From assembly GCA_015852425.1 (NCBI GenBank), contig JAAAIG010000693.1, positions 2,322 to 20,738 of the forward strand: DNA of 18,417 bases. Direction: 5' to 3'. The stretch is from Gryganskiella cystojenkinii. Taxonomy: Eukaryota; Mortierellomycota; Mortierellomycetes; Mortierellales; Mortierellaceae. This document shows positions 1 through 18,417 of the stretch, in pieces (position 1 is the first letter of the stretch; every line of letters starts with the position of its first letter). The translations under genes and the position numbers were made by a program. The notes under the pieces are model-generated. The model was not told the origin of the DNA, did no database searches, and saw only the letters and a list, made by a program, of their open reading frames with translations.

Positions 1-69
1 AAAAGAAAGAAAGTCAGTGCAAACAGAACAAATGGGGCTTTGTCTATGACGCTGGATCTCGTTCTTTAC

Positions 70-2099
70 CTCGGCTGACTTCATCCGGATCGTTGGCCAG
101 GAGGTAATAGAGTGGACCTAAAATCTCATTCATCCCTTGCACATATCCAACACCAGGGTTGAGTTTTGCATATATGAACAGGACACGCTCAATCGCCTCC
201 CAATGCAGATCCTGTGGGAGTTGATCCTGATCCTCTCCTTCCTCGTTCTTCTCTGTGGGTGACATTGACCCTTCAGTGGAATCAGGTGTTGACTTGTCCG
301 AGGCAATCCGTTCGCCCTTCTTGTTTCGGCGTTTCTTAATCCAGTCATCCTGCGACTTGGAGGCCTGAAGTGTATGAGGTTGGTGTTCGCGTGAACCAAA
401 GTCTCGGTTCAGATGAGCGACTCGTTTGAACAGTGATCGTCGTGTCGGGATTGGAGAGAAGAGGTAGTCTGGTAGAGGAAGTTCCTCCTGTTTATCTCTA
501 TCCTCATCACTTTCGTCGGGCGACTCTCCAATTGCAGAAGCCATGCCTCGAAGTCTCGAGGGTATAGGCGACGAATAGTTGTTGTTAGGTGTCCTATATC
601 CATTTGAAAGAGACGTCGGCGGGGTCTCAGTCCCACTTCCAGCCGAAGGGGTAGACAATATCGCACTCTGCCATGGATCCGTCGCTTCTGGTGGAAATCT
701 ATCCTGTTTTTTTTCTGCTCTCGGGGACATCAGCGTCACGGTTTGGCGACGTACGAGGTTAGGCGTGATGCATCGCGATACAGGGTTTCGTTTCAGATCG
801 ACGCTAACGCTCTGCAGCATGCCTCCCCGTTTTGGTGTCGTCGAGACCAAGCTTTTGCTCATTCCGCTGGACCCAGATTGTGATGTAAAAGCAGCCCCTG
901 TTGTCGTTGACGATGATGTTACTTTTGACGAGGATATTGCGTCTGTTGTGTCTGTTGATGGCAGAGTGGCTGCTGTAGTCTCTGTCACAGGGATCGGGGG
1001 CGAAGATTTTGGAGAGCTTTCCCTTGAGGAGGCAGCAGCAGCGGCAGCCTTTCTGGCCTTTAGAATCTGTGGTTCGATACTCAAGGGACAGAGAGGTGAG
1101 TAAGGAATGGGTAGCTGAAAGAAGGCGAAATCCGGTAGTGTTCTTCGAACATCTTTATCGATCTGTTCCAGAGTTTTGTTGTCCTGAAAGTACCGGGACC
1201 ACTCCGAGTCGTCCTTGCGCCTGGATGACTATTTTTTGTTTTCGAGAAAAGGAAGGGATAGAGATCGTAATTAGCACCGGATCTTTACATAAAGAGGCGC
1301 TTTAAGTGTAGGCCATCCAATACTACATTTTTTTTTTACCTCATCATCATCTCCGGTCGAGTCGCTACCAACCAATTCAGGTTCGACAATTAGGTCCTTG
1401 ACAAAGCTCTGTTGATTTGTTCATTAAACAATTCCATATGTCAGTTTCCGTTCTCATATCTCGAGATGAGCAGGTTCATTCTGGTGGTGAGATACAATCG
1501 AGGCAATGAGACTTGCATAATAGAGACGTCTTTGTTCCATGAGGACAGTTTCCCATCTCGATTTGTCCAAGGGCAGATAGCCAAGCAGAATCTAATTGTT
1601 ACAATAAAGACCCCCCAGCCCGTGTGGCAATGAGTGTCGAGCCTTTTTCTTCTCTTAGTTCGTTGGAATGGTTCCTGAATCTTTTTCGATGTGTTTCACC
1701 TTCCAGCAGACTTGACGAAGTCCAGGTTTGTCCGGGATACCTGTGTTAATCACGATGAATGAGCAGAGTCAATAACAAAAAGTCCACGTTGGATCAAAAG
1801 AAACGCGAAATCTACTTTTGTCAAACAGAATCAATGGTTTTCGATTTCGATGTTTTCTTTGTATAATATCTCGCGCACGGTCCAGAGAGGAGTTCCTTTT
1901 CTTGTCTTCATTACCACTAAAGCACAGCTCTTTGAACTCGTCGATGGATATCATTGTCTCCTCCCCGTCTGTCACCAGGTACTTCTCGAACTGACTTATC
2001 CTAGTGCAGAACAAAGATAAAGGAACTTAGTGTCGAATTTGTGGCAAGAGTCTTCGTTTTTCCTGTTAAAAATGGGTACCTCGCTATATAGCTCTCCAT
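70..2099 (-). CDS. TBC1D13: TBC1D13-like Rab GTPase-activating protein (TBC domain), 3' part outside window
   Basis: TBC-domain Rab-GAP; family members speed GTP hydrolysis on Rab proteins at intracellular membranes. I rebuilt six minus-strand exons: 2099-2080, 2000-1915, 1740-1700, 1591-1517, 1408-1340 and 1228-70 (donor GT at 69-68). They join in phase to 483 codons plus one base. The reading begins MESYIARISQFEKYL, continues through FSGIPDKPGLRQVCWK and ILLGYLPLDKSRW, and follows animal TBC1D13 closely. Catalytic signatures are present: the arginine-finger motif IxxDxxR (I120, D123, R126) and the glutamine finger in YVQGMNE (Q461). Between them lies a Ser/Pro/Lys-rich, probably disordered insert of about 280 residues, far longer than the linker in animal proteins. 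The fourth intron uses a GC donor. The start is the only ATG that splices in phase onto exon 2. The rest of the TBC domain must lie beyond position 1. Family assignment is very secure; the very short first exon is inferred from splice phase. Confidence 0.9.
1409..1516 (-). other. GC-AG intron in the TBC1D13-like gene
   Basis: Read on the minus strand, the exon ending ...RRLYY is followed by gcaagt and the next exon starts with AGC after ...caacag. Joining these keeps frame and length against TBC1D13 (LYY then SFVKDLIVEP, no gap). The nearby GT at 1512-1511 gives the wrong phase. GCAAGT is the normal consensus for the minor GC-AG class spliced by the major spliceosome. Intron length is 108 nt. 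Confidence 0.75.
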
Positions 2100-2892
2100 G
2101 GGTGGTTTTGTTTTATTCTTTCGAAATGGCAATGAATGAACTGACAAAGTGGAAGAGAAGGAAATGTGGAATGAAGAAGGAAAAAAATAAAACAAACGGA
2201 ATGCATCCTCTTTTGGGACTGAAAGACAAAGTTCTTTCCTCCCTTTTGGGTTGGTAGGATTGACCCTTTTTTTTCTACCCCACCCATCCTACACGCACAT
2301 CCTCCTTCCTTGTTCCTGTCCCTGTCGTTTTTTTTTCTCTCCTTAGCCTCCTTAACAAAGAATACGACAAAAGAAACGTGCATCGTTATTGTTGGGTCGT
2401 TGGCCCGACTCTCCCCTCTCACACTCTCTCCCTTGTTCCCACAGTTACAAATAACAATAACCACGCTCACACCTGCAGTGCACTGCACGCGAATGCCCCG
2501 TTCCAACTGTTGTCTTTCTTTAACTAAGTCTATTTTTGAAAAAAGAGGCTGTGTTGGTTGCACGTTTTTAAAAATAAAACTAAAACAACACGAGAATAAA
2601 AATAAAAATAAAAACGTATGAAATAGAGGCCCCTTAATCAATTAGTGATCGCGTTGTGACTGCGCGTCTCGCGTTCACTAAAAAGACAACGACGCGATGT
2701 CGACATCACAATCGACATCTCTCTTCCCACCCCGCCCTCTCCCTCACAACCGACTTTTCTCTTTTTCACATTACTCTTTCAATCTCGGGCAGAAACAGGA
2801 GAGCGATTCCCAACCGAGATCAAACTCACTACTTCACCACTTCAACCCGAATAACGACTTCATCTCACCCCTCCTTTTTTTTGGGCTCCAAC
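2100..2892. promoter_or_regulatory. divergent intergenic region between the TBC1D13-like and APSES genes
   Basis: About 0.8 kb separates the two start codons, so it should hold both promoters and 5' leaders. It is rich in C/T on the plus strand (2260-2350 and 2700-2880), as is common upstream of fungal genes, and has an AAAAT-type short repeat at about 2594-2614. I found no ORF with recognisable protein character. The long open frame running into the APSES gene from 2656 has no in-frame ATG before 2893 and low-complexity content, so I treat it as leader. A CGCG-site cluster is listed separately. Confidence 0.6.
2649..2697. promoter_or_regulatory. cluster of MCB/StuA-like CGCG sites upstream of the APSES gene
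   Basis: Within 49 bp there are TCGCGT (2649-2654), GCGCGT (2662-2667), TCGCGT (2669-2674) and ACGCGA (2692-2697). A further ACGCGA lies at 2487-2492. APSES proteins of the Mbp1/StuA type bind a CGCG core (MCB is ACGCGT), so these are candidate binding sites about 200 bp before the ATG. Function is inferred from motif match only. Confidence 0.45.
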
Positions 2893-5456
2893 ATGACAGC
2901 CAACATCTACACGGCTGCTTACTCGGGTGTACCAGTCTACGAGATGATGTGCCGAGGCATCGCCGTCATGCGTCGACGGGACGACTCTTCTTTGAACGCG
3001 ACCCAGATCCTCAAGGTTGCTGGAATCGAGAAGGGCAAACGTACCAAGATCCTCGAACGAGAGGTCTTGATCGGTGAACACGAAAAGGTCCAAGGCGGCT
3101 ATGGCAAATATCAAGGCACCTGGTAAAAAAAAATGGCCCCCATGTTTCCATCAATTTGATGAACACTTTCATTTTTTTATATTTTTTTTACGTTCTAACG
3201 TGGACTTATCCTTTTATCAAATAGGGTCCCGTTTCAACGTGGCAAGGATCTGGCGAGACAATACAGGGTTGAAAGTCTCTTGCAACCTCTATTCGAATAT
3301 GACTTTCAAGTCGGCGAGGTCGACACCATCACCCCAACAAAGGAAATGGCCCAGATGGCTCAAAAGAACAAGGACCAATTCCGATACTCGAAATCTTCCT
3401 CCACAAGTTCACCCAGAGCCAGTCCTATGTCGAAACGTCCTCGAGGCGCCTCTGTCAAACTAGGATCTCATGCACCTTCATCGATGACACCTTCACCTTT
3501 ACATCCGTCCGTCAATAGCTCATCTGTGCCTCCCTCGCCTCAATGGCAACACCCGGATCTCGGTCCCCGGAAACGACTTCGCGCTCAAAATTCACCACCT
3601 CCAGGCGCTTACGACTACGATTATGCTACCAATCAGGAGAACGGTAACGGCGGTCTTGTGGGTTATCACAGCAACAGTGGTCATGACAGGTCCTCGTCCT
3701 CCAACTCTCAGCTTCATGTCCTTTCGTCCATGGAAAATCAACAACACCAACAACAACATAATCAACTAGAGGGTGCAGAGCGCTATCGATCCATCCTAAT
3801 GTCGATTTTCTTGACCGACGATACTGAGGAACATGTACCCATCCCAGATCTCCTGACCAATCCAACCATCCCACAAGATCTCGATATCGATCTTGTGATT
3901 GATGATCAGGGTCATACGGCTTTACACTGGGCTGCCGCATTGGCCCGTGTACCCGTGATGGAACTCTTGGTCCAGCGAGGATCCGATATCCGCCGCGTGA
4001 ACTATAGCGGCGAATCATGTCTTGTCCGAGCTGTCCTCGTGACGAACAATTACGATCGACAGACGTTTCCTCATTTACTCAATGTCCTTCACAAGGCGAT
4101 CCCGATCGTGGACCGGAGCAACCGGACATTGCTGCATCATATCGCGTTGACCTGTGGGATCAAGGGGAGAAGTTCTTCGTCACATTATTACATGGAATGT
4201 CTACTGGAATGGATTGCCAGGAATGGGGGCGATTTCTCGTCAATCATTGATATCCAGGACAAGAATGGAGATACGGCCCTGACGATCGCAGCAAGATTGG
4301 GGGATCGATATATTAGCAAGTTTTTGGTCGATGTGGGCGCGAACCGGGATTTGGAGAACAAAGTCGGGTTGAAGGCTGCGGATTTCGGGGTCGAGGATGG
4401 AAAAGTATGTTTGTATTCAGAATGGACCCGAAGGATCGAACTCTGGAGCACACACATGAACGCATTAACAACATGCTCACATTTACCATCCTTTGTTCTT
4501 AATGCCATTCTTAGTACATCTCGACGGATCAGCCATTTGCGCCTCGAACACACGTGGTACCAACGCCTACCAAGGAATCACCAACGAAACGTGGCAAAGA
4601 TATCATGCATGGTGGGGAAAACAATCAAACATTGAAGAGTTGATAATGTTGTTCGTTTTGTCAAATCGATCTCTTGTACACTGATTAACGGATGTTTTTA
4701 TATATTTTTCTTTTTCTGTTGCTTTATTCTCACATAATAGTCGTACAGAAGATGGTCGACGAGTTGGATGTTGAGTTCTCGCATGAGATCCTGACCCGTC
4801 ATTCCCAACTCGAGGATGCTCAGATTCAACTGCGGAACGCGACGAGAGCCTTGACCGAGACCCGGAAAGCGATTCAGGAATACAAATCTCAGGTGCAACA
4901 GCTGGCTGAGGCCCAACAAAAGATCAAGAACCTCGAAGTTTCTTTAGAAGAAGAAAATCAACGGACAAGAAACCAAAAGGGGTATACGACCAAGATGCGA
5001 AGCAATCCTAGTAATCATGAGGATATCGATTTGCTCTTCAATGTACGTCCCGGTGCTGGCGCCGGCGCAACAACAGAGAGCAGCGGTGGGCTATCACGGG
5101 AAGAACAGGCAGAGCAAGACGTCATCCTTCTCCGCTCCAGGGTTCTGGCCTACCAACGGAATCATGAAGAGCTGGTCCAAGAAGTTGCTGAGGCCAAGAG
5201 CAAGAGTTCTGCGAACGAGTTGCTCTGCAAACGGGTCATCTCCATCTGTTGTAGTATCCCGCTGGAGCAGGTTGACGAGATGTTGATACCATTGACGTTG
5301 GCAGTTGAGAGCGAGGGTGCAGGCTTGGATCTTTCTAGAGTCGCAGGGTTTATGAGTCGAGTCAAGCAACAGGAGGGCATGGCGTCATCCAACATTGCGA
5401 CAACGACGTCCATGGGTCCTGGTGTCAAGGCTTCGGGGCCAGCCAATGTCTTGTAG
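2893..5456 (+). CDS. MBP1: APSES-domain, ankyrin-repeat transcription factor of the Mbp1/Res (MBF) type
   Basis: Likely DNA-binding subunit of an MBF-like G1/S transcription complex, acting in the nucleus. Exons are 2893-3122, 3225-4404, 4515-4638 and 4741-5456, with phase-consistent introns of 102, 110 and 102 nt, giving 749 residues. The N-terminal APSES/KilA-N winged-helix domain (about 1-105) is near-canonical: [40 protein letters not shown] and [15 protein letters not shown], the last split by intron 1 inside the Trp codon. A Ser/Pro-rich linker follows, with basic patch RKRLR (192-196) and a short Gln-rich run. Ankyrin repeats start near 303 ([10 protein letters not shown], 306-315) and end near 470. 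A coiled coil starts near 513 ([12 protein letters not shown]), the usual site for pairing with a Swi6-like partner. ATG 2893 is the first in-frame ATG. The third intron donor, GTTGAT, is weak but is the only phase-correct choice seen. Orthology to Mbp1 rather than another APSES paralogue is not certain. Confidence 0.92.
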
Positions 5457-5676: not shown

Positions 5677-8600
5677 TCAAACATTGTTGACATGCGTTTG
5701 CGCGGTTCGTTTCCGAAAAAATCTCCAGGGGGATCTCTTGCGGTGAACCTCGGAAGGTTGATCTTCGTCACCGCTTCCAATGACCATGGCATCAATGGAG
5801 CTGGTCTTTCGATGACCGCTCATCATAGATACAGACCCCGATCCTGTCCCTGATGCGGATCCAAGTGCTGTTGCTGCCACTGCATGGGCTGTGGCTTGCT
5901 GTAGCTCTAGCTCTTGGATCGGTGACATGGGTCTTTTTCTGGTCAAGTTATAATGACCTGTAACTTCGGAGTTAGAATCACCAGCGGAAGAATGGAAGGG
6001 AGGGAAAACCGGTGGTGGCGGGGGCATCGCAAAGCTCGACATGGAATAGGCCGAGGCTAGGTCCATCTCTTCTTCTTCATCCTCGGTATCAAAGTAGCGT
6101 CCAATGCTGCTTCCACCGGCACTGTTGCGACTGCCATTGTAAAGAGATCCTCGTTGTCCTCCCCTGGACTTGGAGACGATCGAGTTGGAGGGCTCGGACC
6201 CTGACCTGTAGTGGTGTCGTCTCGTGCCCAGGAATCCAAAAGGACCTGACTTGGTTGCTGTCTTTGTGGTCGTTATTTCGGAATCTGATGCATATGATGT
6301 GGTGAGCGTTGATCTTTCAGGAACTGACTTTCGATCGGGGACGGGTTGTAGGTAGAGTAAAATGGGTTTGCAGGAGAACATTCGGTCCATCATCTTGTCC
6401 ATGAGTCTCTCTGCTATGCTGCTGTTGGAGAGTTTTCGGATCATCCTTCCAGTGAGGTTCTACAACAAGAGTCAACGAGAAGAGAGCACCATTAGTCACT
6501 CTAGCAAGGAATCACGCAGGTAAGTACCTTGCTCAAAGAAAAGGAAAAGATAAAATCCTTACTCGATTGAAGAATAACTGGTCCTGTTTGTTGGCACACC
6601 AGAGAGCATCTTGGGTCATCGACGATCGTTGTTTATACTGGGTCTGGAAAATCTCTTTGATATCACTGGAGGAGCTGGATGGTAGCTTTGACAAGAGGTT
6701 TGCGAGGTTGATCGCGTCCATAATCGCCTGAGTCGGCCCATGCCCGGTCGACATTTGAAATTTGTGGCAAGCTAAACAAAAAAAATAATCCATTGAAAAA
6801 CGAAACACAGTTCGTTAGCGCAACCAGATGAGAACAACATCCGAAATGATAATTCTCGGAATAAAATTAGAACAGCCTTACCATCGCCAACAAGAATGGT
6901 CCTTCCATGAGACCAAGTCCGATAGATTTTTTCTTCGACAACAGAGACGCCTAACATCCTCCTTGAGGTCGCATCGACAATGTCTCCCAAGGTCCCCCCG
7001 AACGGACAGGGTTGTTCCCGAATCGATTTTTCGATCGTCAACTTTCTGTCAAGGTAGCCCCAGTTCCTACCCATGCATAGCTCTTGAAGTTGTTTCAACT
7101 GAAATTGTTGCTCATCCCTGTCCAACTGAGCGATCTCTTGAGCGGTCGAGTCGACCGGCTCGAGCACAGTCGCGTATTTTGGAATCGCATGCGAGCAAGA
7201 AAATAACCCTCCGTTAGGTTTCGAATTGCTGGTCCGATTGTTTTCCTTGACCCTTATTACTGATGTTGAAGTTCCTGACCGTAAGAGCAATCCAGGTCCT
7301 GCTGCGGTTAAGGTTGCAGATGTCAAGGTTGTAGACTCTAACTGGGGTTGATCGTTCGCAGAAACGCCAGGAAAAACCAAAGGTGCTGACAGCGACAATG
7401 GTACCTCGGCAATCTGCTCTATGGGTATAACAGCTCCGAATACTGTCTGCTGAGTTCGCCTTCCAGTGTGTTTCCCCACACCGCCACCACCGCCTGTTCC
7501 CTCGAACCGCGATTCTAGACTGACTCGGGTTCCTGTCTCGTCAGGATGGTCCATCAAATTGGCTGGTGGTCGAGGTTTTGGAGGGACAGAAGCCGTGACA
7601 CCCCAGCCAAAGCGACAATCCGCCATCGGCACGTACCAGACCTGTGATAGATGAAAGAAGACTATTGTGAGTAAAACAGACTATCCGACTGTTCTATCGT
7701 TCCTCTTCACATTCGTCATACATACTGTGTAGTTTGCGTCCTTGGGCATGGTCAGCATGAGTTCACAGTTTTTGGATTTCAAAATTGGGTATATAGCCGT
7801 GTCCAACGGTTCTGTAATCCCTACGATGCACTGTTGATCCGTCCTGGAGGGCGACAGGTCCGAGGGGTGAAGAAAGATCCTTTCCGAATTAGAGCGTACG
7901 GTGCCTGCTTTGCGGATCTCTCGAAACATGTTTTCTCGTACGGATGACGCGCCTCCGTCTGCTCCAACAAGAATATCGCCGAGGTACGAGGATCCGTCCT
8001 CACAACGAACAATGATACTCCTGACAGTGTTTTCCTGCTCGGTTGTTTTCCTGTTGTTACTGTTATTATTGACTTGGTAGCTCAATTCCAAGAGACTATC
8101 GTTGTTCAGAATCGTTGAGCTAGAGTCTGTGCTGACAACTTTTTTGCCAAAGAGGATCTTGTAGGCCGGTATCCTGGAGAGCAAGATGTCATAGAGCTTG
8201 GGTCGCACGATCGTGAGAGCGTTGTAACCGTACCTGTAAACAGCCGAGAAAACGTCCGAAAACCACAAACGGAATAGGATAAACTTTGAGTGAACTCTTT
8301 TCTCACCTTATTCTTTACTGCTTTTCTTGTCCTTTTACTGCCTTTGTTCGTCATTTTTTTTTAGCGCCATTTCTGTGCCTGGTTTCCTTTCCTTTCCTTT
8401 TTTTTTTTTTTGCTTTCCGTTCCTTGGAGCTGTCTGTGCTGAATCGACAGACTTTACGGAGGGCGTGATTATGCATGGTGATGCCAGTCATATAGTTCGA
8501 GTGTCGGATAAGGTCGTCCAAAAGTCCTAATTGCTCCATGACACGCATCACAGGTGGACCCAGGTAGATACTTCCACCGAGAGAAAGGATATGATCTGCG

Positions 8601-8707
8601 GCCTCGAGGATCACATAGTCAATCCCTGCGCGCTCCAACATTACACCAAGGGAAAGACCAGCAATACCACCACCAGCGATGACGACCTTGAAATGAGGAG
8701 GGGCCAT
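5677..8707 (-). CDS. FAD-dependent monooxygenase (PF01494-like) with long disordered C-terminal tail
   Basis: Class A flavoprotein monooxygenase-like oxidoreductase; substrate unknown. Minus-strand exons: 8707-8418, 8233-7726, 7641-6882, 6771-6563 and 6459-5677, which sum to 849 residues. The N-terminal Rossmann motif is VVIAGGGIAGLSL (GxGxxG at 12-17), followed by an acidic strand end (ILEAAD). RPKLYDILL follows near residue 107, then the NADPH/FAD-associated GADGG (187-191), and GRTILVGDACHKF with the flavin-binding GD at 518-519, split by intron 3 exactly after Asp. The usual proline after the GDA-H motif is absent (FQMSTGHG). A Gly/Ser/Thr-rich insert lies between about 290 and 430. The last 200 or so residues are low-complexity, with an acidic run, MPPPPPVFPPF and a basic end (RKRSPWRFFRKR). 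Intron 1 (8417-8234) has no GT donor in the needed phase. No upstream in-frame ATG extends the start. Family secure, exon 1-2 junction uncertain. Confidence 0.85.
8234..8417 (-). other. intron 1 of the FAD monooxygenase gene with a non-GT donor (apparent GA-AG)
   Basis: The acceptor (gtttacag before G-TAC-GGT) is clear because it opens straight into RYGYNALTIVRPKLYDILL. It requires a donor leaving two bases of a codon. The exon 1 frame reads FSTDSSKER and then runs into AAA-rich sequence and a TGA. The only phase-2 position giving smooth protein is CG followed by gaaagc. The GT dinucleotides nearby (8456, 8450 and 8446 on the minus strand) give phase 0 or 1 and break the frame. Either this is a rare GA donor, a mutated gtaagc, or the true junction differs from my model. 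Confidence 0.45.
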
Positions 8708-10321
8708 TAATCTATCAATAGCAATTGAACGCGAAAGGATGAGTAAGGTGATGGTACCTTTGGTCGGTGATGCTGTGGAGAAAAAAAATACCAAAGACGG
8801 TATTGGAGGCGGAGGAGAAGATAGGACAGAAGACAGAGGCACAACAGAGAAGCGGTTGTGAGAGAAAGGAAGAAAGACCTTCTACCAAAGGGAGGACAAG
8901 GAAATCCTCTCGAAGCGACTTCTTGTTCTTTCTTTTAAGGTTGCTGAGTTTGCAAATGAGAAGAATGAATGAATGTGAGGAGTGAGGTCCAAGTCCTAAA
9001 GAGATGAGATGCGAGTTGAGAGAGAGTGAGAGAGAGATGGAGAATGTAAAGAAGCGGGGACGTAAATGGACTTGAGGGAGGTCACAAAGAGCGAAAACAG
9101 AACAACGAGAACAGACCCCTCTCTTTACCCACTAGATTAGGAAGGGTCCATGTTTTGACCGTTTTGAGGGGGCATGTCAATTAAAAAAAATGAAAGGTGC
9201 AGACCAAACGAAAGTAATAACGAGCAGAGAGCAGCAGCTTTTGTGTACATTTAGCATCATGTCCCCCCCTGTCCTTTGTGGGAATCATTTTTTCCCGAGG
9301 TTGCACAAAACAAAACTTGATCATTTGTTACCAACACAATAAGGCCCAGGCGAGACGATTATTTTCACATCAAGGACACGATCCCAAGTGGGAGCCAAGT
9401 CAAAGCGCAATATTTTTTTTGCAAAAGAAATCCGAGAGCCGTGGGGTTTCGCTCTTCTCTGTACCATTCAAACGGCACGGACAGGGCACACGATTGAGAA
9501 AGAGATTGCATTCTCGTTCCATATCCGCACTTCTTTTTTAGCACGAACAAGGATAGGAGGGAAAAGGGGGAGGGAGGAGGAGGAGGAGGAGGGGGGGCAA
9601 CAACGACGTTAGTTCTGGTTACTCCTGGGCACTCCGTCCCACAACCCATTCGTGCTGCTCAATCAAAGAAGAAGTAATAAAACAACAGCACAGCAGACAG
9701 AGGAGACATCATTGGCCTTTTCCCCATCAATGTAAAACCGAAGAGCGCGAACGAACAACACGTTGTAGGCAGTCGAAACCTACCAGGGTCAGGACAAAGG
9801 TTAAAGAGGCAGCACGAAGAAGAATGCCACCACGATCGAAAACACAACTGGAGCAGGACATGGCTAAGTCGAAGTGAAAGCACCTGAATCCAAGCGCACG
9901 GTCAGCCAAGAAAAGGCCCTACTTTATGATAAGGAGCCTTTATTCAAAACCAAAGATCGTTTATTATCATTGTTTCTGGAAGAAAAAGACTCCCACGCCA
10001 ATCTCCCTGTTGCCCATCGATCACTAGTAGGGGTGGAATAGCGTGAGAGGGACAGGGAGGATTTCTATTGACATGAAACAAGGGTAGAGCTTCAACTATA
10101 AAAAAAGACTCCAGCATGAGAAGTGAGGAGACGTTTTTTTCCACGTCCATGACGCATAGGATTATATGTCGCGCAAAAAACAAATATTACGCCACCAACT
10201 TGGAACACGACTTTTAAAGTTGACCGAGGAAGCGGTCAAAGTTGCCAGCCAAGAAAACAAGAAAGGACGCAACCAAAAGACGCGCACCGTACCCGGTCCC
10301 CGGCCAGGCGACTCTTGATCT
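8708..10321. other. gene-free stretch upstream of the FAD monooxygenase
   Basis: About 1.6 kb in which I see no supported gene. The part next to 8707 must hold the monooxygenase promoter (minus strand). Plus-strand purine-rich stretches dominate 8770-9080, including a GA-rich run near 9017-9040. A long G/A tract lies at 9556-9597. Open frames here are short, low in complexity and without recognisable domains. No tRNA-like cloverleaf was seen by eye. Confidence 0.5.
9556..9597 (+). repeat. homopurine G-rich tract with AGG triplet repeat
   Basis: A 42-base run of only A and G holds GGG, GGGGG and GGG blocks, five AGG triplets and a final run of seven G. This pattern can form a G-quadruplex or triplex and is also prone to slippage. 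It lies in non-coding DNA between 8708 and 10321. Confidence 0.7.
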
Positions 10322-11836: not shown

Positions 11837-13675
11837 GCAGCAGCAGTACCTGTGGTGGTGCGAAATGGAGACAGCCTGTCCATCCTTGTCCTTGTCGTTA
11901 CATCTTCATCATCAACAACAGCAACAAGATATAAAGAAGGAAACTATAAAAGGACTGCAGTTGTGGCGGTTGGAGGGTGCCTTTGGTTGACCCGAGGCGG
12001 CAAGTAGTGGTAGTGGTCTTTGATCAGTCAAACAAGTCATTAGACTTTCAGAGCACTCAGAAACATAGAATCCGGAACCCCAAATGGAACAACTGAACAA
12101 CTTTTTGCACAAGGCAATAACGCGCACTGTCACGAGGAATTGATAACCTCGTTCCACGACACTCCTTACACCATGACGACTCCAACAGACCCATACACCT
12201 CGAGTGGTCAGCTTACTCTATCTCTCTATCTTCTCTGCTGCCTCCAGCAAAGGCTCTCCTGGTTCCCGAGATTCTGATGACATTGCTTCCTCCCTCAAGA
12301 TTCGTGATAACCGATCCTGTCTTTTGTATGTCATGTCTTCTGCAGGAGTTCTGGTGCGACCCATTACTGAAAGACAACAAATGCTGTCCTCTCCCTCGAG
12401 AGACTGTCCAATCTAGTGCTCCATTTGTCAAGACCGTGACCCCCGTTTAGAACCAAGCAGTGGTGGTGACCGAGACTGTCGCGAAAGTGTCTATGATGCG
12501 GCCTGTAGGAGGTCCTATTTTCCATCTTTCAATCAACCGTTCTTCCTGGTTACCAACAAATTCTTCAAATCGCCGAAGACTTTATAAAAAGGCCGTCTAT
12601 GAGAGTTCTTGCGGCCGCGTCACAGTTTCTGTTGTCGATTAGCTGGCGTGAACTGCAGGGAAAAGAAAAGAACGACAAGGTTGAACAAACTAGGCGATGT
12701 TGCGAGGGGAGGACTCTTGGGGGATATGTGGGAATATGGTAATCCCAGCAATGACTCTTCTAAATGGGTATCAAGCAGATCACTATTATGCGTACAACGC
12801 TTGTATCAGTATCTCTGGATGTACTAAGGAGAATAATGAGCAAAGACAAAAGACGGATAAAGAACAAGAGAGAGGGTTAACGTTAGGGGGTAATGTAGAC
12901 TGCAGGAAGCTTGGACACAAAACATTTCTGGAAATTGAAGGGCGCGCAAAGTCAACAGTGGGGGAATCTTTTTTGTGAGCATGGGGGCAGGGATGTCGCT
13001 TTTCGTCTCTTAGCCTTAAATCCTCCATCTCATTTGCAAACGCCATTTACCATCCAGAGAGAGAGAGTGAAGTTTTCATTCTCATTTCATCTCCTCAATC
13101 GATTGTGTGCCAGCCATCTCTTGTCCTTTATTTATTCTTTCTCGGTAAAGCGTGTTCTTTGTCGCAGTCAGACTCGGTTCCTGTCAACTCGTCATTTTTT
13201 TTTTTGCGGTCCATAGCACGACAGTCGTAAGTAGAAGTGGTATGGCGTTACCACTGGAGACAACAACAACAACGACGTTGCATGTCCTTACGATTAGTTT
13301 TCTATGACCTATCTAGGAGTTCCCTTTCTGGCATTTCTTTCTCTCGAGGACTCGGCCAGTCGCTGTTGTTGTCCATGTGAGTCGCTCGCAATGAACGACG
13401 AAACTCAATGTTGAGAGTATTTTTATATTTTTTTAATCAGGTTCTAAAGAATAACTCCTTATTCCTTAGACAAACAAACTCTTCAACCTTCCAGGTCCCA
13501 TCCTCAGCAGCAATAACGAAGCACAGTCCTGTTAGTTGATTAAATAATCCAACTCATAAAAATGTGAGATAAAAGCGATCTGCCGTGCTTCGCCCATTCC
13601 TTTCTTTGAATTTCGAAGAGGGCCATACTCATACGATTTTCTTTGCGCCGAGTTAGAAAAAAATCTGATCTATCC
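11837..13675. other. gene-free stretch upstream of the STAND gene
   Basis: About 1.8 kb with no supported gene. A plus-strand frame at about 12170-12453 is open but lacks a start and any family signature I can defend (it includes ALLVPEILMTLLPPS). The remaining frames are short or low in complexity. The last 250 bp should carry the promoter of the STAND gene; A/T-rich words such as tttttatatttt occur near 13420-13435. I saw no terminal inverted repeats, transposase motif or tRNA. Confidence 0.45.
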
Positions 13676-16600
13676 ATGACGAACCCGAAGACGAACGCGC
13701 TTCTGCCGCCTCAAACAAGAGGGTCGCATTCCAGGGACCTCAGCACGGACTCAAGCGGAAAGAAGAAATCATTTTTCCGCAACCTATTCCGATCGAGGTC
13801 TCCGACTCCTACAGCAGTCAACCATGTGAGCACGACGACTCTTGCTCCTAATTCAGTTCAGGGAAACATAAATGCATCTGGATCATCGCCAAGCATGTCC
13901 ATCGCGACCGCAAGCTCGGGTGTCTCTACTGGACAGGTAGCTCTCTCGCCAGCAATTGCATCCAATCTTGCCACAATAGCATCCACGACCAACATAGACA
14001 CTCTCTCGGTCAGCTCTTCTTCCATGGGTGTGACGACTATGCCTACGTCTGCCGGATGCAATAAGATCTCGCCCGGTCTCACTCTAAGTGCTCCAAAGGG
14101 AACGGGAACGGGAACCACCACTCTGTCCATCGCGACCGCAAGCTTAGGTGTCTCAACTGGACAGCGGCACCCTCTCTCGCCAGCAATGGCGTCCAATCAT
14201 GCCACGGTCGCATCCACGACCAACGTAGGCACCCTCTCAGTCAGCTTTTCTTCCTTGGGTGCGACGACTACGCCTACGTCTGCCGGACGCAATCAGATCT
14301 CACTCGGTCTCACTCTTAGTGCTCCAAAGGGAACGGGAACCACCACTTTGACCTTAAGATCCGATATCTTTCCAAAGAACGGCATCGCCAGAGTCAACTT
14401 CGCCATCTCTGCACCCAAGATCGGCTACGACTTTCAAAACACAGCCCAATTCACCATCTGCGCTGGTATCCTCAACAATGTTCTTCAAGCAGCACCCGTC
14501 CCCTCCTCCTCTTCATCGTCCACTCAGTCGACAGTATCCGCTGGCGACCATCCTAACCTCAGCTCGCTCAGTGCATCACAGAAAGAATGGATCTTGGAGA
14601 TGGAAAAGAATCCCATCGAAAGGAAGTACGTCTATCAGACTATGGATCAAATGGTGAACCAGTTTGTCTCCAATGACTCGAAGGACGCTGAATCCATTCG
14701 CGAGATTGTCCTCCTGGGACCCGTACTGAACGCTAAACCTTACAAAAAGCTTCTGGACTGCTTCCGTCAACGTTTGGACGGATCTACTCTCATCGATGTT
14801 GACGATCTTCTTGGATTGGCGCAGTTGGTCCAAGTTGCACCCAAGGGCCACCTGGTAGCTGATGATTTAAACCGGATCCTTCTCCGCCTTAGGGGTTGCG
14901 TCGAGCTTTCTTCACAACTCGACAAGAATGTGCTGGCCCATATTGTCCTTGTGATCGCCATCGTCCTTATACGTCTAGTAGATTGCCGTACCAATGGTCT
15001 CAGTCGTGAGAAGGAGTATGAGCCACTGCTCAAGCTTCTCCTGGACCTGAGAGAGGACGACGACCCTCTTGTGAGATATCAAGCCTGTTACGCCTGCCAG
15101 AGTCTACTCTTAGTACCTGACGACGAGACCCTTCGCCAAGAGTTCTGTCGCCACCTTCTTAGTCTGTCCAGCGGCCTGTTGAAAATGTCAGGTATTGCTC
15201 GACTCGAGTTTGACGGGATTGCTGAAGGTTTACCTGACACGATAAAGGGTGCGCGAGGACTGCTTGCCTTTTTAAAAAAAGAGCTCGGATCAGGAGGCAA
15301 AGAACCATGGTTCTCAGCGATCGGTAAGGCGAAAGCTCATATCCAAGAAGGCGATCTTTCCCACCTGAAGTACATGGTCTGTGATCCGCGCCATCGTCAG
15401 GATCCCAAGTTCTTGTGGGGAATCATTCAGCTGCTAGGCGAGATTGCAGCCGATCCATATTGGGATGTAGCCAGTAGGGAGCAGGCTGTCGAGTTCCTGG
15501 GCGAGCTCTTCCGGGCCAGCGTCAACTCCAAGCAGGACCACGACCAGGACATTTTGCGATGGATCCTGACGGTTCTTGACCATCTCTCTGGCCTGTCAAC
15601 CACGGACTCTTCTGAGGGCACCAACTCTGCGCTGACGAATCTCCACACACCAATCAGAGCGAAGGCACAGGCGTTGTTTGACATCTTGTCGCAGAGCAGT
15701 ATCAAAAAATTCGAGTACATTCATCCATTGCGCATTAGCCTTCCCCTCCCAGAATCATCTAAACTACTGAAGGACGTCAACGACCACCCTGATCTGGACC
15801 ACGCCATCTACAAACTCCAGCATAAGAGACAAAGCGAATACAAAGCCCAAAAATCCATATTTATTCCACCAATGTCCAAAGTGAGCTTGGTGGCCACCGA
15901 TAACAACCCTGTCGAGCTTCATACCCGTGCTCAGGAATTTTTGGGAGGAACGGCCCAGGTAATGTTGATCTTGGGCGATTCTGGAGCAGGAAAATCGACC
16001 TTTAATAGACATCTGGAAAACAAGCTTTGGGGAGAGTACAAACCGAAAGAGAGCCGCATCCCGTTGTTCATCAACTTGCCCGACATTGATCATCCTCGAC
16101 AGGATATGATTGACAAACAATTACGCATCTACAAGTTCTCTGAACCTCACATCAAAGAGCTAAAGCTTCACCGACGGCTCCTTTTGATCTGTGATGGTTA
16201 CGACGAGGCTCACCTCGATGACAATCTTCACACTACCAATTTTCTCGACAATACAGAAGAGAAGGACGTGAAGATGATGGTCAGTTGCAGAAGTACGTTT
16301 GTTGGCCAGAGCCATCGCGATCTCTTCAGTCCTCAAACGCGCGATCGATACCAAGCTGCCAAACCCGACCAGTACACTGAAGCTGTGATCATTCCGTTCT
16401 CAGAAGACCAGATCGAGGACTATGTCAGTCGGTTTGTGCGAGACTCAGAGGTACACAAACCGGCGGACGAAGAGCCTATCTGGGGTGCTGGGGACTACAT
16501 GCACAAGCTAAAGTCGATCCCCAACTTATTGGAGCTGGTCAAGAACCCGTTTCTACTCTCGCTCTCACTCAGTGCATTGCCAAGGATAGTAGGAAGAGGG

Positions 16601-18417
16601 ACCGATCTGGCGACAGTCAAAGTGACTCGCCTGACCTTGTATGATTCCTTCATTGATCATTGGTCCGAGACGAGCCGACTTCGACTGAGACGGACTACTC
16701 TCTCCGGTGAATTCAAGACTGCCTTTGATCTCCTCATTAACGACGGCTTTGCTGTGAGTATTGTTGATTTTTCGAAAAACCTTGCCGCTGCCATCTATCA
16801 TCAACATAATGGAGTCCCGGTGGTGGAGTACAGGCCAAGACGCGATCGAACAACATGGAAGTACGAGTTTTTTGATCCTGCTCCAGAGACGACACTGCTC
16901 TTGGAGTCAAGTCCAATGTCTCGTGTCCATGACAAATATCGGTTTGTGCACCAGTCTTTATTAGAGTATTTTTACTCGCGATATGTGTTTGAGACAGGAT
17001 CAGACGACTATGCTGTATCGCAAGACCTCGAGGATATCTCTTACCATCCGTTGAGCAAGAGACACCTTGTCAAGGAGTCATCGATCCTTCAGTTCCTAGC
17101 CGAGTATGTTCAAGCATATCCAGATTTCAAAGAAAAATTGGATCAGATCATCGAGCGATCCAAAGTGGATACTCAAGCAAGTCAAGCTGCTGCAAACGCC
17201 ATCACGATTTTAGTCCGCGCAGGAATTCGATTCCACGGAGCTGATCTGAAAGGGATCTGCATTCCTGGCGCAGATTTAAGTTATGGTCAGTTTGATTCTG
17301 CACAACTGCAAGGCGCAGATTTGAGAAACACCACTGTTCGCAACATTTGGCTGCGCCAGGCTAATTTGAGCGAGGCACAAATGGAAGGCGTTGAATTCTG
17401 TGAGTGGCCCTATTTATTAGTGGGCGACTCGATCTCCTGCAGCACATATTCTCCAGACGAAAAAGCATGCGCTGTTGGTCTTTTTGATGGCACAATCAGA
17501 GTGTACAATGCCTCAACTTGGTCCAAAATTTTTTCTTTGGAAGGACATACTGGCCGTGTTACAAGTGTGGTGTATTCACCCAGTGGCCATCAAATCGCGT
17601 CAGGGAGTTGGGACAAGACTGTGCGACTGTGGGATGCACAAACTGGTGCAGCTGGTCCTGTTGTAACTGGCCACACTCACTATGTTACAAGTGTGGCATA
17701 CTCACCGAGTGGCCATCAGATCGCGTCAGGCAGTTGGGACAAGACTGTGCGACTGTGGGAGCCAGAGACTGGTGCGGCTGGTCCTGTCTTAACTGGCCAC
17801 ACTCACTATGTTACAAGTGTGGCATACTCACCGAGTGGCCATCAGATCGCGTCAGGCAGTTGGGACAAGACTGTGCGACTGTGGGAGCCAGAGACTGGTG
17901 CGGCTGGTCCTGTCTTAACTGGCCATACTGAATGGGTTAGAAGTGTGGTATATTCACCCAGTGGCCATCAGATCGCGTCAGGCAGTGACGACAGCACTGT
18001 GCGATTGTGGGAGGCACAAACCGGTGCAGCTGGTCCTGTCTTAACTGGCCATACCAATATTGTCACAAGCGTGGTGTATTCACCCAGTGGCCATCAGATC
18101 GCGTCAGGTAGTCATGACAAGTCTGTGCGGCTGTGGGATGCGCAGACTGGTGCAGCTGGCCCTGTATTAACTGGCCACAGCAGAGATGTCACAAGTGTGG
18201 TGTATTCACGCAGTGGCCATCAGATCGCGTCAGGCAGTGACGACAGCACCGTGCGATTGTGGGATCCACAATCTGGCGCAGCAAGTCCTGTCTTAACTGG
18301 CCACACTGAATGGGTTAGAAGTGTGGCGTATTCACCCAGTGGCCATCAGATCGCGTCAGGCAGCTGGGACAAGACCGTGCGACTGTGGGAGGCACAAACT
18401 GGTGCACCTGGTCCTGT
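13676..18417 (+). CDS. STAND/NLR-like protein: NACHT ATPase with pentapeptide and WD40 repeats, 3' end outside window
   Basis: An open frame of 1580 codons with no stop or intron needed. Residues 1-225 are Ser/Thr-rich and include two copies of a 75-76 residue block. About 300-740 is Leu-rich and helical (ARM/HEAT-like by eye), ending in IYKLQHKRQSEY and IFIPPMSK. The NACHT ATPase follows: Walker A GDSGAGKS (767-774), Walker B LLLICDGYDE (D840, D843, E844) and sensor MVSCRS (R872). The helical tail contains NPFLLSLSLSALP and YRFVHQSLLEYF (from 1088). Pentapeptide-like A(D/N)LxG repeats span about 1186-1241. One degenerate WD blade (YSPDEKACAVGLFDGTIRVY) is followed by seven 42-residue WD40 units that run off the window. 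STAND proteins are ATP-driven oligomerising switches; in fungi some act in non-self recognition. The ligand and effector here are unknown, and no known N-terminal death-effector domain (HET, HeLo, Goodbye) was recognised. The start is the first ATG giving continuous frame. Domain calls are firm, role inferred. Confidence 0.93.
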   Translation, partial: MTNPKTNALLPPQTRGSHSRDLSTDSSGKKKSFFRNLFRSRSPTPTAVNHVSTTTLAPNSVQGNINASGSSPSMSIATASSGVSTGQVALSPAIASNLATIASTTNIDTLSVSSSSMGVTTMPTSAGCNKISPGLTLSAPKGTGTGTTTLSIATASLGVSTGQRHPLSPAMASNHATVASTTNVGTLSVSFSSLGATTTPTSAGRNQISLGLTLSAPKGTGTTTLTLRSDIFPKNGIARVNFAISAPKIGYDFQNTAQFTICAGILNNVLQAAPVPSSSSSSTQSTVSAGDHPNLSSLSASQKEWILEMEKNPIERKYVYQTMDQMVNQFVSNDSKDAESIREIVLLGPVLNAKPYKKLLDCFRQRLDGSTLIDVDDLLGLAQLVQVAPKGHLVADDLNRILLRLRGCVELSSQLDKNVLAHIVLVIAIVLIRLVDCRTNGLSREKEYEPLLKLLLDLREDDDPLVRYQACYACQSLLLVPDDETLRQEFCRHLLSLSSGLLKMSGIARLEFDGIAEGLPDTIKGARGLLAFLKKELGSGGKEPWFSAIGKAKAHIQEGDLSHLKYMVCDPRHRQDPKFLWGIIQLLGEIAADPYWDVASREQAVEFLGELFRASVNSKQDHDQDILRWILTVLDHLSGLSTTDSSEGTNSALTNLHTPIRAKAQALFDILSQSSIKKFEYIHPLRISLPLPESSKLLKDVNDHPDLDHAIYKLQHKRQSEYKAQKSIFIPPMSKVSLVATDNNPVELHTRAQEFLGGTAQVMLILGDSGAGKSTFNRHLENKLWGEYKPKESRIPLFINLPDIDHPRQDMIDKQLRIYKFSEPHIKELKLHRRLLLICDGYDEAHLDDNLHTTNFLDNTEEKDVKMMVSCRSTFVGQSHRDLFSPQTRDRYQAAKPDQYTEAVIIPFSEDQIEDYVSRFVRDSEVHKPADEEPIWGAGDYMHKLKSIPNLLELVKNPFLLSLSLSALPRIVGRGTDLATVKVTRLTLYDSFIDHWSETSRLRLRRTTLSGEFKTAFDLLINDGFAVSIVDFSKNLAAAIYHQHNGVPVVEYRPRRDRTTWKYEFFDPAPETTLLLESSPMSRVHDKYRFVHQSLLEYFYSRYVFETGSDDYAVSQDLEDISYHPLSKRHLVKESSILQFLAEYVQAYPDFKEKLDQIIERSKVDTQASQAAANAITILVRAGIRFHGADLKGICIPGADLSYGQFDSAQLQGADLRNTTVRNIWLRQANLSEAQMEGVEFCEWPYLLVGDSISCSTYSPDEKACAVGLFDGTIRVYNASTWSKIFSLEGHTGRVTSVVYSPSGHQIASGSWDKTVRLWDAQTGAAGPVVTGHTHYVTSVAYSPSGHQIASGSWDKTVRLWEPETGAAGPVLTGHTHYVTSVAYSPSGHQIASGSWDKTVRLWEPETGAAGPVLTGHTEWVRSVVYSPSGHQIASGSDDSTVRLWEAQTGAAGPVLTGHTNIVTSVVYSPSGHQIASGSHDKSVRLWDAQTGAAGPVLTGHSRDVTSVVYSRSGHQIASGSDDSTVRLWDPQSGAASPVLTGHTEWVRSVAYSPSGHQIASGSWDKTVRLWEAQTGAPGP
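13895..14347 (+). repeat. in-frame tandem duplication in the N-terminus of the STAND gene
   Basis: Unit 1 (13895-14122, 228 bp) and unit 2 (14123-14347, 225 bp) align along their whole length. Both begin with SIATAS.GVSTGQ and end with LSAPKGTGTTT-like sequence. They differ by scattered substitutions, a codon insertion after STGQ in unit 2 and one fewer GGAACG (Gly-Thr) hexamer in unit 2. The length difference is a multiple of three, so the frame is kept. Confidence 0.9.
17543..18417 (+). repeat. array of seven high-identity 126-bp WD40 repeats (seventh cut by the window end)
   Basis: Units start at 17543, 17669, 17795, 17921, 18047, 18173 and 18299, each 42 codons (the last truncated). The shared frame is GHTxxVTSVxYSPSGHQIASGSxDxTVRLWxxQTGAAGPVLT, with the WD40 GH and the terminal aromatic-Asp/Glu pair. 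Units 2 and 3 are identical over all 126 bp. Differences cluster at residues 3-7 (GRV, HYV, EWV, NIV, SRDV), at the W/D/H after GS, at the following K/S, and in the two or three residues after LW. The array continues beyond the window. Confidence 0.95.

What the first reader, a model, noticed from the sequence alone, without database searches (positions are those of the whole stretch)
17543..18417. Near-identical WD40 repeats with variation confined to a few codons: a hypervariable recognition array
Seven 126-bp units share almost all bases, and units 2 and 3 are identical. The changes sit in the loop after GH, the GSxDx position and the residues after LW. In fungal HNWD/NWD-type STAND proteins, high repeat identity with a few variable surface positions marks concerted evolution, repeat shuffling and diversifying selection on a ligand-binding face. 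Here the same layout appears in a gene that looks Mortierellomycote, far from the Ascomycota where it is best known. The sequence pattern is seen directly; the recognition role is inferred.
Basis: partly seen in the sequence, partly recalled or inferred. Interest (0 to 1): 0.75.

Follow-up and report, generated by a model that had tools for sequence, protein, structure and literature searches.

The report
Fungal immune-type receptor with hypervariable WD40 sensor
A soil fungus far from the well-studied moulds carries an immune-type receptor gene whose sensor end is built from look-alike repeats that change mainly at the few positions expected to touch a target, the pattern known from self/non-self recognition genes of Podospora.

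Summary
The feature is real. Window 17543-18417 holds seven in-frame 126-bp WD40 units, the last cut by the contig end; units 2 and 3 are identical. They end a large NLR-type gene (ARM/HEAT solenoid, NACHT, pentapeptide, WD40) of Gryganskiella cystojenkinii (Mortierellaceae). Variation is confined to a few codons only for amino acids: silent changes are spread out (pS 0.30), so most units are not fresh copies. In 173 units from 19 fetched arrays of this genome the five most variable positions (5, 23, 7, 4, 25; G of GH is 1) include the four positively selected in Podospora HNWD repeats. Against a shared synonymous rate only these five have beta>alpha; with a free rate per site only 5 and 7 are significant. 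The model places them in loops and at one strand start. The same five lead in 435 units of 48 other Mortierellaceae proteins; gene pairs with bodies at least 85% identical differ at 79% of these positions, 12% elsewhere. Ligand, function and variation between isolates are not shown. No HET domain was found: the sensor looks HNWD-like, but the gene is not an HNWD. A variant of a known kind.

The parts
13676..18417 (+). NLR-type (STAND) gene, 3' end beyond the contig; open frame 13610-18415, first ATG of the frame at 13676 taken as start (inferred)
   Evidence: 1602 codons, no stop, open 3' end; contig ends at window base 18417
13896..14340 (+). 231-bp tandem duplication (1.9 copies) inside the coding, S/T-rich N-terminal region
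   Evidence: no Pfam family at E 0.01 in 13610-14605
14609..15616 (+). ARM/HEAT-like helical solenoid, Pfam ARM_5 (PF23948)
   Evidence: searches (E 6.2e-32, aa 334-669; E 1.9e-33), helices in model m271fd6ef8ace
15959..16444 (+). NACHT NTPase domain with Walker A GDSGAGKST and Walker B LLICDGYDE (motif names recalled)
   Evidence: searches (E 1.5e-11; E 9.1e-12), alignment
17300..17401 (+). pentapeptide repeats (PF00805) between NACHT module and propeller
   Evidence: E 1.3e-9
17423..17542 (+). degenerate first WD40 blade (four strands in the model)
17543..17668 (+). WD40 unit 1
17669..17794 (+). WD40 unit 2, identical to unit 3
17795..17920 (+). WD40 unit 3, identical to unit 2
17921..18046 (+). 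WD40 unit 4
18047..18172 (+). WD40 unit 5
18173..18298 (+). WD40 unit 6
18299..18417 (+). WD40 unit 7, cut by the contig end

Best explanation
This is an intracellular NLR/STAND receptor of a Mortierellaceae fungus. The C-terminal WD40 array is the sensor: similar blades give a uniform propeller scaffold, and codons 4, 5, 7, 23 and 25 of each blade (d-a loop, start of strand a, b-c turn) form a ligand face on which change is favoured, most clearly at codon 5. Repertoire comes from point change at these codons, from gain and loss of blades, and from many paralogues. Inferred: ligand binding releases the NACHT module to oligomerise, and the N-terminal helical solenoid and tail pass on a defence or cell-death signal. 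Shown: architecture, hypervariable positions, codon-level pattern, predicted fold, family-wide occurrence. Inferred: ligand binding, oligomerisation, output, and whether the cue is conspecific non-self, endobacteria or other microbes.
For: Architecture ARM_5-NACHT-pentapeptide-WD40. Top five variable positions 5, 23, 7, 4, 25 in 173 own-genome units and again in 435 units of 48 proteins, out of 120 listed homologues. Codon model, 172 distinct units: 5 (omega 4.4, p 6e-7) and 7 (2.6, p 0.001) with free site rates; 4, 5, 7, 23, 25 and no other site with a shared synonymous rate. 49 independent closest pairs (34 of them within one gene): N/S 5.9 at the four Podospora sites against 0.88 elsewhere; single-base codon changes only 53 N: 5 S, neutral ratio about 3.0, p 0.0016. 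Propeller model pLDDT 93, pTM 0.89; sites 4, 5, 23, 25 outside strands in 7 of 7 units. In 25 homologue pairs with bodies at least 85% identical, unit number differs in 16; mean positional difference 0.79 at the five sites, 0.12 elsewhere.
Against: No isolate data. With free site rates, 4, 23 and 25 have omega about 1, while 11 and 16, not among the five, have omega 1.9 and 1.6 without significance. In the close group of 61 units 7 and 25 are not significant. The single-base test is not significant with stricter pair cut-offs (5 pairs p 0.29, 22 pairs p 0.11) and gives p 0.036 when position 4 is added; it leaves out the codons with several changes (44 at the four sites). Recombination and multi-base change can inflate such tests. 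The 19 arrays come mostly from the 30 best DNA matches to the window array (of 88 listed), so they lean towards it. No known effector domain at the N-terminus. Body model confidence is low (pLDDT 65). Unit number and order come from an assembly that breaks in these arrays.
Confidence: 0.67

Rival explanations
1. Relaxed constraint rather than diversifying selection: loop residues of a stable propeller drift freely while the scaffold is kept by purifying selection; the receptor's specificity is not being selected for change.
For: Free-rate codon test gives omega near 1 at 4, 23 and 25; 7 and 25 are not above 1 in the close group; single-base counts are not significant in the closest 22 pairs. 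Hu et al. 2017 (PMC5587647, passages) report that in highly repetitive WD40 proteins generally the predicted interaction hotspot sites stay diverse.
Against: Position 5 omega 4.4 and position 7 omega 2.6 on all units; single-base N:S 53:5 against neutral about 3:1, p 0.0016, in 49 pairs; no site besides the five exceeds a shared synonymous rate.
Confidence: 0.2
2. Recently amplified propeller with no recognition role: blades multiply by slippage or unequal crossing-over, and near identity is only a sign of youth.
For: Units 2 and 3 are identical; amplified WD40 propellers are prevalent in fungi and several bacterial phyla (PMC9218822, passages).
Against: Silent divergence within the array is 0.298, similar to that between the bodies of the closest paralogues (0.323-0.372), so most units are not young; changes are not random along the unit.
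Confidence: 0.05
3. Assembly artefact: short reads were wrongly joined, so the identity of units 2/3, unit number and order are not real.
For: The contig ends inside the array; at least 11 contig ends of this genome lie within 100 bp of array matches (with lengths; no chance expectation computed); N's occur in the fetched stretches of two other array contigs, C690 and C693; for Podospora, Illumina-based assemblies failed on these arrays (PMC12222747, abstract and passages). How G000 was sequenced is not known to me.
Against: The position pattern does not depend on order and recurs in 19 arrays and in homologues, among them proteins from megabase-scale contigs of Mortierella alpina and Linnemannia hyalina.
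Confidence: 0.07

Closest known systems
Podospora anserina HNWD/NWD receptors (het-d, het-e, het-r)
   Same: Central NACHT, C-terminal WD40 units with high internal identity, variation concentrated at corresponding unit positions (2007 paper: codons 7, 9, 25, 27; 2025 paper: 10, 11, 12, 14, 30, 32, 39), many paralogues.
   Different: N-terminus is an ARM/HEAT-like solenoid behind an S/T-rich region, no HET domain found; a pentapeptide stretch precedes the propeller; mean unit identity is lower in the other 18 arrays (64-79%, window 82%) than the 80-100% given for Podospora; allorecognition role unknown.
Mortierellomycota NOD-like receptors of NACHT-PPR-WD40 architecture (PMC11291939; abstract and passages)
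   Same: Phylum, NACHT-pentapeptide-WD40 order (I take PPR there to mean pentapeptide repeats), large expansion: the body search gave 1147 proteins; of the 120 listed, those with an organism name are Mortierellaceae genera (family membership of the genera recalled).
   Different: That paper concerns origin (shared with the endosymbiont Mycoavidus); the passages read do not treat repeat identity or site-wise selection. No bacterial name appears among the 120 rows listed here; the other 1027 were not shown.
NLR_Helical N-terminus shared by Pezizomycotina, Mortierellomycetes and Mycoavidus (PMC9815663; passages)
   Same: Long (over 500 aa) N-terminus with an alpha-solenoid in front of the nucleotide-binding domain.
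   Different: Identity with that cluster was not tested; here it is inferred from helices and ARM_5/HEAT matches.
WRAP and other highly repetitive WD40 propellers (PMC9218822, PMC5587647; passages)
   Different: The WRAP of Npun_R6612 is reported without synonymous substitutions, i.e. very recent; here silent divergence is substantial.

Membership tests
Fungal NLR (STAND) receptors | Central NACHT or NB-ARC nucleotide-binding domain | tested here: met
   PF05729 above its cut-off, 45.6 bits against 26.7; P-loop and DGYDE motifs visible
Fungal NLR (STAND) receptors | C-terminal superstructure-forming repeats | tested here: met
   WD40 PF00400 seven stretches; propeller model
Fungal NLR (STAND) receptors | N-terminal effector or accessory domain | tested here: inconclusive
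   helical ARM_5 region present; no Pfam family at E 0.01 in 13610-14605
Fungal NLR (STAND) receptors | Ligand-dependent oligomerisation and signalling | not testable with these tools
   needs experiment
HNWD (Podospora het-d/het-e type) | N-terminal HET domain | tested here: not met
   none at E 0.01 in the two pieces, 13610-14605 and 14606-15622, that lie in front of the NACHT part; on the whole frame showed 25 of 40 families, none of them HET
HNWD (Podospora het-d/het-e type) | WD40 repeats of over 80% identity within the gene | tested here: inconclusive
   window mean 82% aa, range 67-100%; the 85% over 100 aa rule of Dyrka 2014 (PMC4986451, passages) was not applied as such
HNWD (Podospora het-d/het-e type) | Diversifying selection at the four codon positions | tested here: inconclusive
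   four of four with a shared synonymous rate on all units, two of four in the close group; two of four with free site rates
HNWD (Podospora het-d/het-e type) | Concerted evolution within and between paralogues | tested here: inconclusive
   same-gene nearest neighbours 78.1 of 173 against 9.0 shuffled; units less diverged than C-terminal tails in 111 of 136 gene pairs, but less than bodies in only 15 of 28
HNWD (Podospora het-d/het-e type) | Length polymorphism between isolates and recognition of HET-C | not testable with these tools
   one genome held; no allelic pair recognised among the rows listed
Mortierellomycota NACHT-PPR-WD40 receptors | NACHT, pentapeptide, WD40 in this order in Mortierellomycota | tested here: met
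   domain order; species
Mortierellomycota NACHT-PPR-WD40 receptors | 45-50% identical homologue in Mycoavidus | tested here: inconclusive

The most novel reading that the evidence does not exclude
Mortierellomycota run, in parallel with Dikarya and in a different receptor family (ARM/HEAT-NACHT-pentapeptide-WD40, reported elsewhere as shared with their endobacteria), a diversified recognition repertoire: dozens of genes per genome whose WD40 blades exchange and change at the same five surface codons, used for fungal non-self recognition or for screening endobacteria.
Probability: 0.35. Interest if true: 0.72.

Novelty: new variant of a known kind. Interest (0 to 1): 0.5.

Why it matters
High-identity WD40 sensors under diversifying selection are documented in Dikarya, above all in Podospora. 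The corresponding unit positions leading here, in a receptor family of different architecture and in another phylum, suggest that the WD40 propeller is a recurrent scaffold for a variable receptor repertoire in fungi. Burkholderia-related endobacteria are common in Mortierellomycota (PMC11291939, passage), so the system makes it testable whether such receptors watch resident bacteria, other strains or both.

Full report
What is there. The window is G000:C760:2322-20738, and the contig ends at window base 18417. One open frame, 13610-18415 on the + strand, runs 1602 codons without a stop. Pfam shows ARM_5 (14609-15616), NACHT (15959-16444), pentapeptide repeats (17300-17401) and WD40 repeats to the contig end. 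The neighbouring open frame 3199-4635 is 100% identical, over 82% of its length, to a SWI6 protein of Gryganskiella cystojenkinii on a contig of 20738 bases, the length of C760. The genome holds at least 60 NACHT matches.

The repeats. Seven units of 42 codons start at 17543 and every 126 bases after it; units 2 and 3 are identical; the other pairs share about 79-89% of bases. Within the window array nonsynonymous difference is 0.49 per site at the four positions known from Podospora and 0.07 elsewhere, while synonymous difference is 0.30 overall. So the protein variation is focused but the DNA variation is not, and only units 2 and 3 look freshly duplicated, or duplicated by the assembly.

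Numbering. I count G of GH as 1. The 2007 Podospora paper (PMC1805685, passages) names codons 7, 9, 25 and 27, flanking conserved codons 8 and 26. The 2025 paper (PMC12222747, abstract and passages) uses 10, 11, 12, 14, 30, 32 and 39. I place conserved V6 and D24 here on 8/26 and 13/31; the spacing of 18 and the loop positions agree. The papers' sites then become 5, 7, 23, 25 and, for the longer list, also 3, 4 and 32. This correspondence is inferred; the passages I read do not print the repeat sequence.

Own-genome test. From fetched loci, mostly the 30 best DNA matches to the window array out of 88 listed, I extracted 173 units in 19 array stretches; two stretches of C690 may belong to one gene. 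Mean within-array amino-acid identity runs from 64 to 82%; the window array is the highest. The five most variable positions are 5, 23, 7, 4 and 25. Random sets of four positions reach the mean entropy of the four Podospora sites in 1 of 100,000 draws, of seven in 0 of 100,000. A site-wise codon model on an ML tree of 172 distinct units, with its own synonymous rate at each site, supports positive selection at 5 (omega 4.4, p 6.4e-7) and 7 (omega 2.6, p 0.0011) only; 4, 23 and 25 lie between 0.87 and 0.99; positions 11 and 16 have 1.9 and 1.6, not significant. With one synonymous rate for all sites, 4, 5, 7, 23 and 25 and no others exceed it, all after Bonferroni correction. In 61 units of the window gene and its closest paralogues 4, 5 and 23 do, while 7 and 25 do not differ from it. 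Tree-free counts on 49 independent closest pairs, 34 of them within one gene, give N/S 5.9 at the four sites and 0.88 elsewhere. Counting single-base codon changes only, there are 53 N and 5 S at the four sites against a neutral ratio of 3.0 (p 0.0016), with 44 multi-base codons left out; with position 4 added p is 0.036; with the 22 closest pairs 17 N to 2 S (p 0.11); with five pairs 4 N to 0 S (p 0.29). I read this as diversifying selection at 5 and probably 7, with 4, 23 and 25 either selected or unconstrained.

Concerted evolution. Leaving out the five codons, 78.1 of 173 units have their nearest neighbour in the same gene, against a mean of 9.0 when gene labels are shuffled. But silent divergence within the window array (0.298) is only a little below that between its units and those of other genes (0.319-0.602) and that between the gene bodies of its closest relatives (0.323 for C198, 0.342-0.372 for C658, C754 and C25). 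Units are less diverged than the C-terminal tails behind them in 14 of 15 pairs of the body set and 111 of 136 pairs overall, but less than the bodies in only 15 of 28. Some exchange between paralogues is possible; strong homogenisation within this gene is not shown.

Other species. A search with the body found 1147 proteins among 7991 scored; the 120 listed are, where an organism is named, Mortierellaceae, 34-55% identical. Of these 120, 48 have at least four units, 435 in all; the five most variable positions are again 5, 23, 7, 4, 25. Their mean within-protein identity has a median of 63%, so high internal identity is a property of some: 5 of 48 reach 80%. With a second search I had 166 distinct homologues, 64 of them with at least six units and a body. 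In 25 pairs with bodies at least 85% identical the unit number differs in 16, and positional differences average 0.79 at the five sites and 0.12 elsewhere. The closest pair, P0021 and P0023 of Mortierella alpina, has 96% identical bodies, 13 and 12 units, and differs at 77% of the five sites; matched without regard to order the difference is still 0.45.

Comparison with print. I saw abstracts or passages of PMC4986451, PMC12222747, PMC1805685, PMC9815663, PMC11291939, PMC12258605, PMC10197012, PMC5587647 and PMC9218822, not whole texts. High-identity WD40 sensors with selected positions are described there for Dikarya; Mortierellomycota receptors of NACHT-PPR-WD40 type and a helical N-terminus are described; I found no report of site-wise selection on WD40 repeats in Mortierellomycota in the searches. 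That library holds open-licence papers only.

Verdict. A new variant of a known kind: an NLR of a non-Dikarya fungus with an HNWD-like variable WD40 sensor on a different N-terminus. By sequence evidence its sensor works like that of HNWD; it is not filed as an HNWD member because no HET domain was found. Function remains inferred.

Noticed in passing
window 13896-14340: 231-bp tandem duplication (1.9 copies) inside the coding, S/T-rich N-terminal region of the same gene.
   Followed up: no
window 13760-13798: Basic stretch KKKSFFRNLFRSR near the N-terminus resembles KRDKFLNLFRS in several Mortierella alpina homologues; a strict pattern hits 14 of 112 homologues. Possible signalling or membrane motif.
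   Followed up: partly
G000 contigs C492, C1002, C143, C358, C631, C654 (L001-L006): A second NACHT group: the five aligned members (L001, L003-L006) are 20-23% identical to the window NACHT, with GRAGIGK and DGLDE motifs; all six loci score higher against Pfam NACHT (76.8-99.5 bits) than the window (48.7).
   Followed up: no
G000:C213 (L007, L029, L035): Body closer to the window group (pS 0.31-0.43) than to C352 (0.589), but C-terminal tail nearest to C352 (0.334) among the tails printed: recombination through the array, or a chimeric assembly.
   Followed up: partly
G000:C953 (L043): Close paralogue (72% aa) with one in-frame TGA in the body, perhaps a decaying copy.
   Followed up: no
G000 contig ends C107, C902, C784, C993, C142, C104 (both), C754, C760, C494, C133: At least 11 contig ends lie within 100 bp of WD40 array matches, so arrays seem to break this assembly and gene counts are lower bounds.
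   Followed up: partly
window 44-1228 (-), 2638-4635 (+), 7681-8881 (-): Ordinary neighbours: RabGAP-TBC frame, SWI6-type KilA-N/ankyrin regulator, FAD-binding oxidoreductase frames.
   Followed up: no
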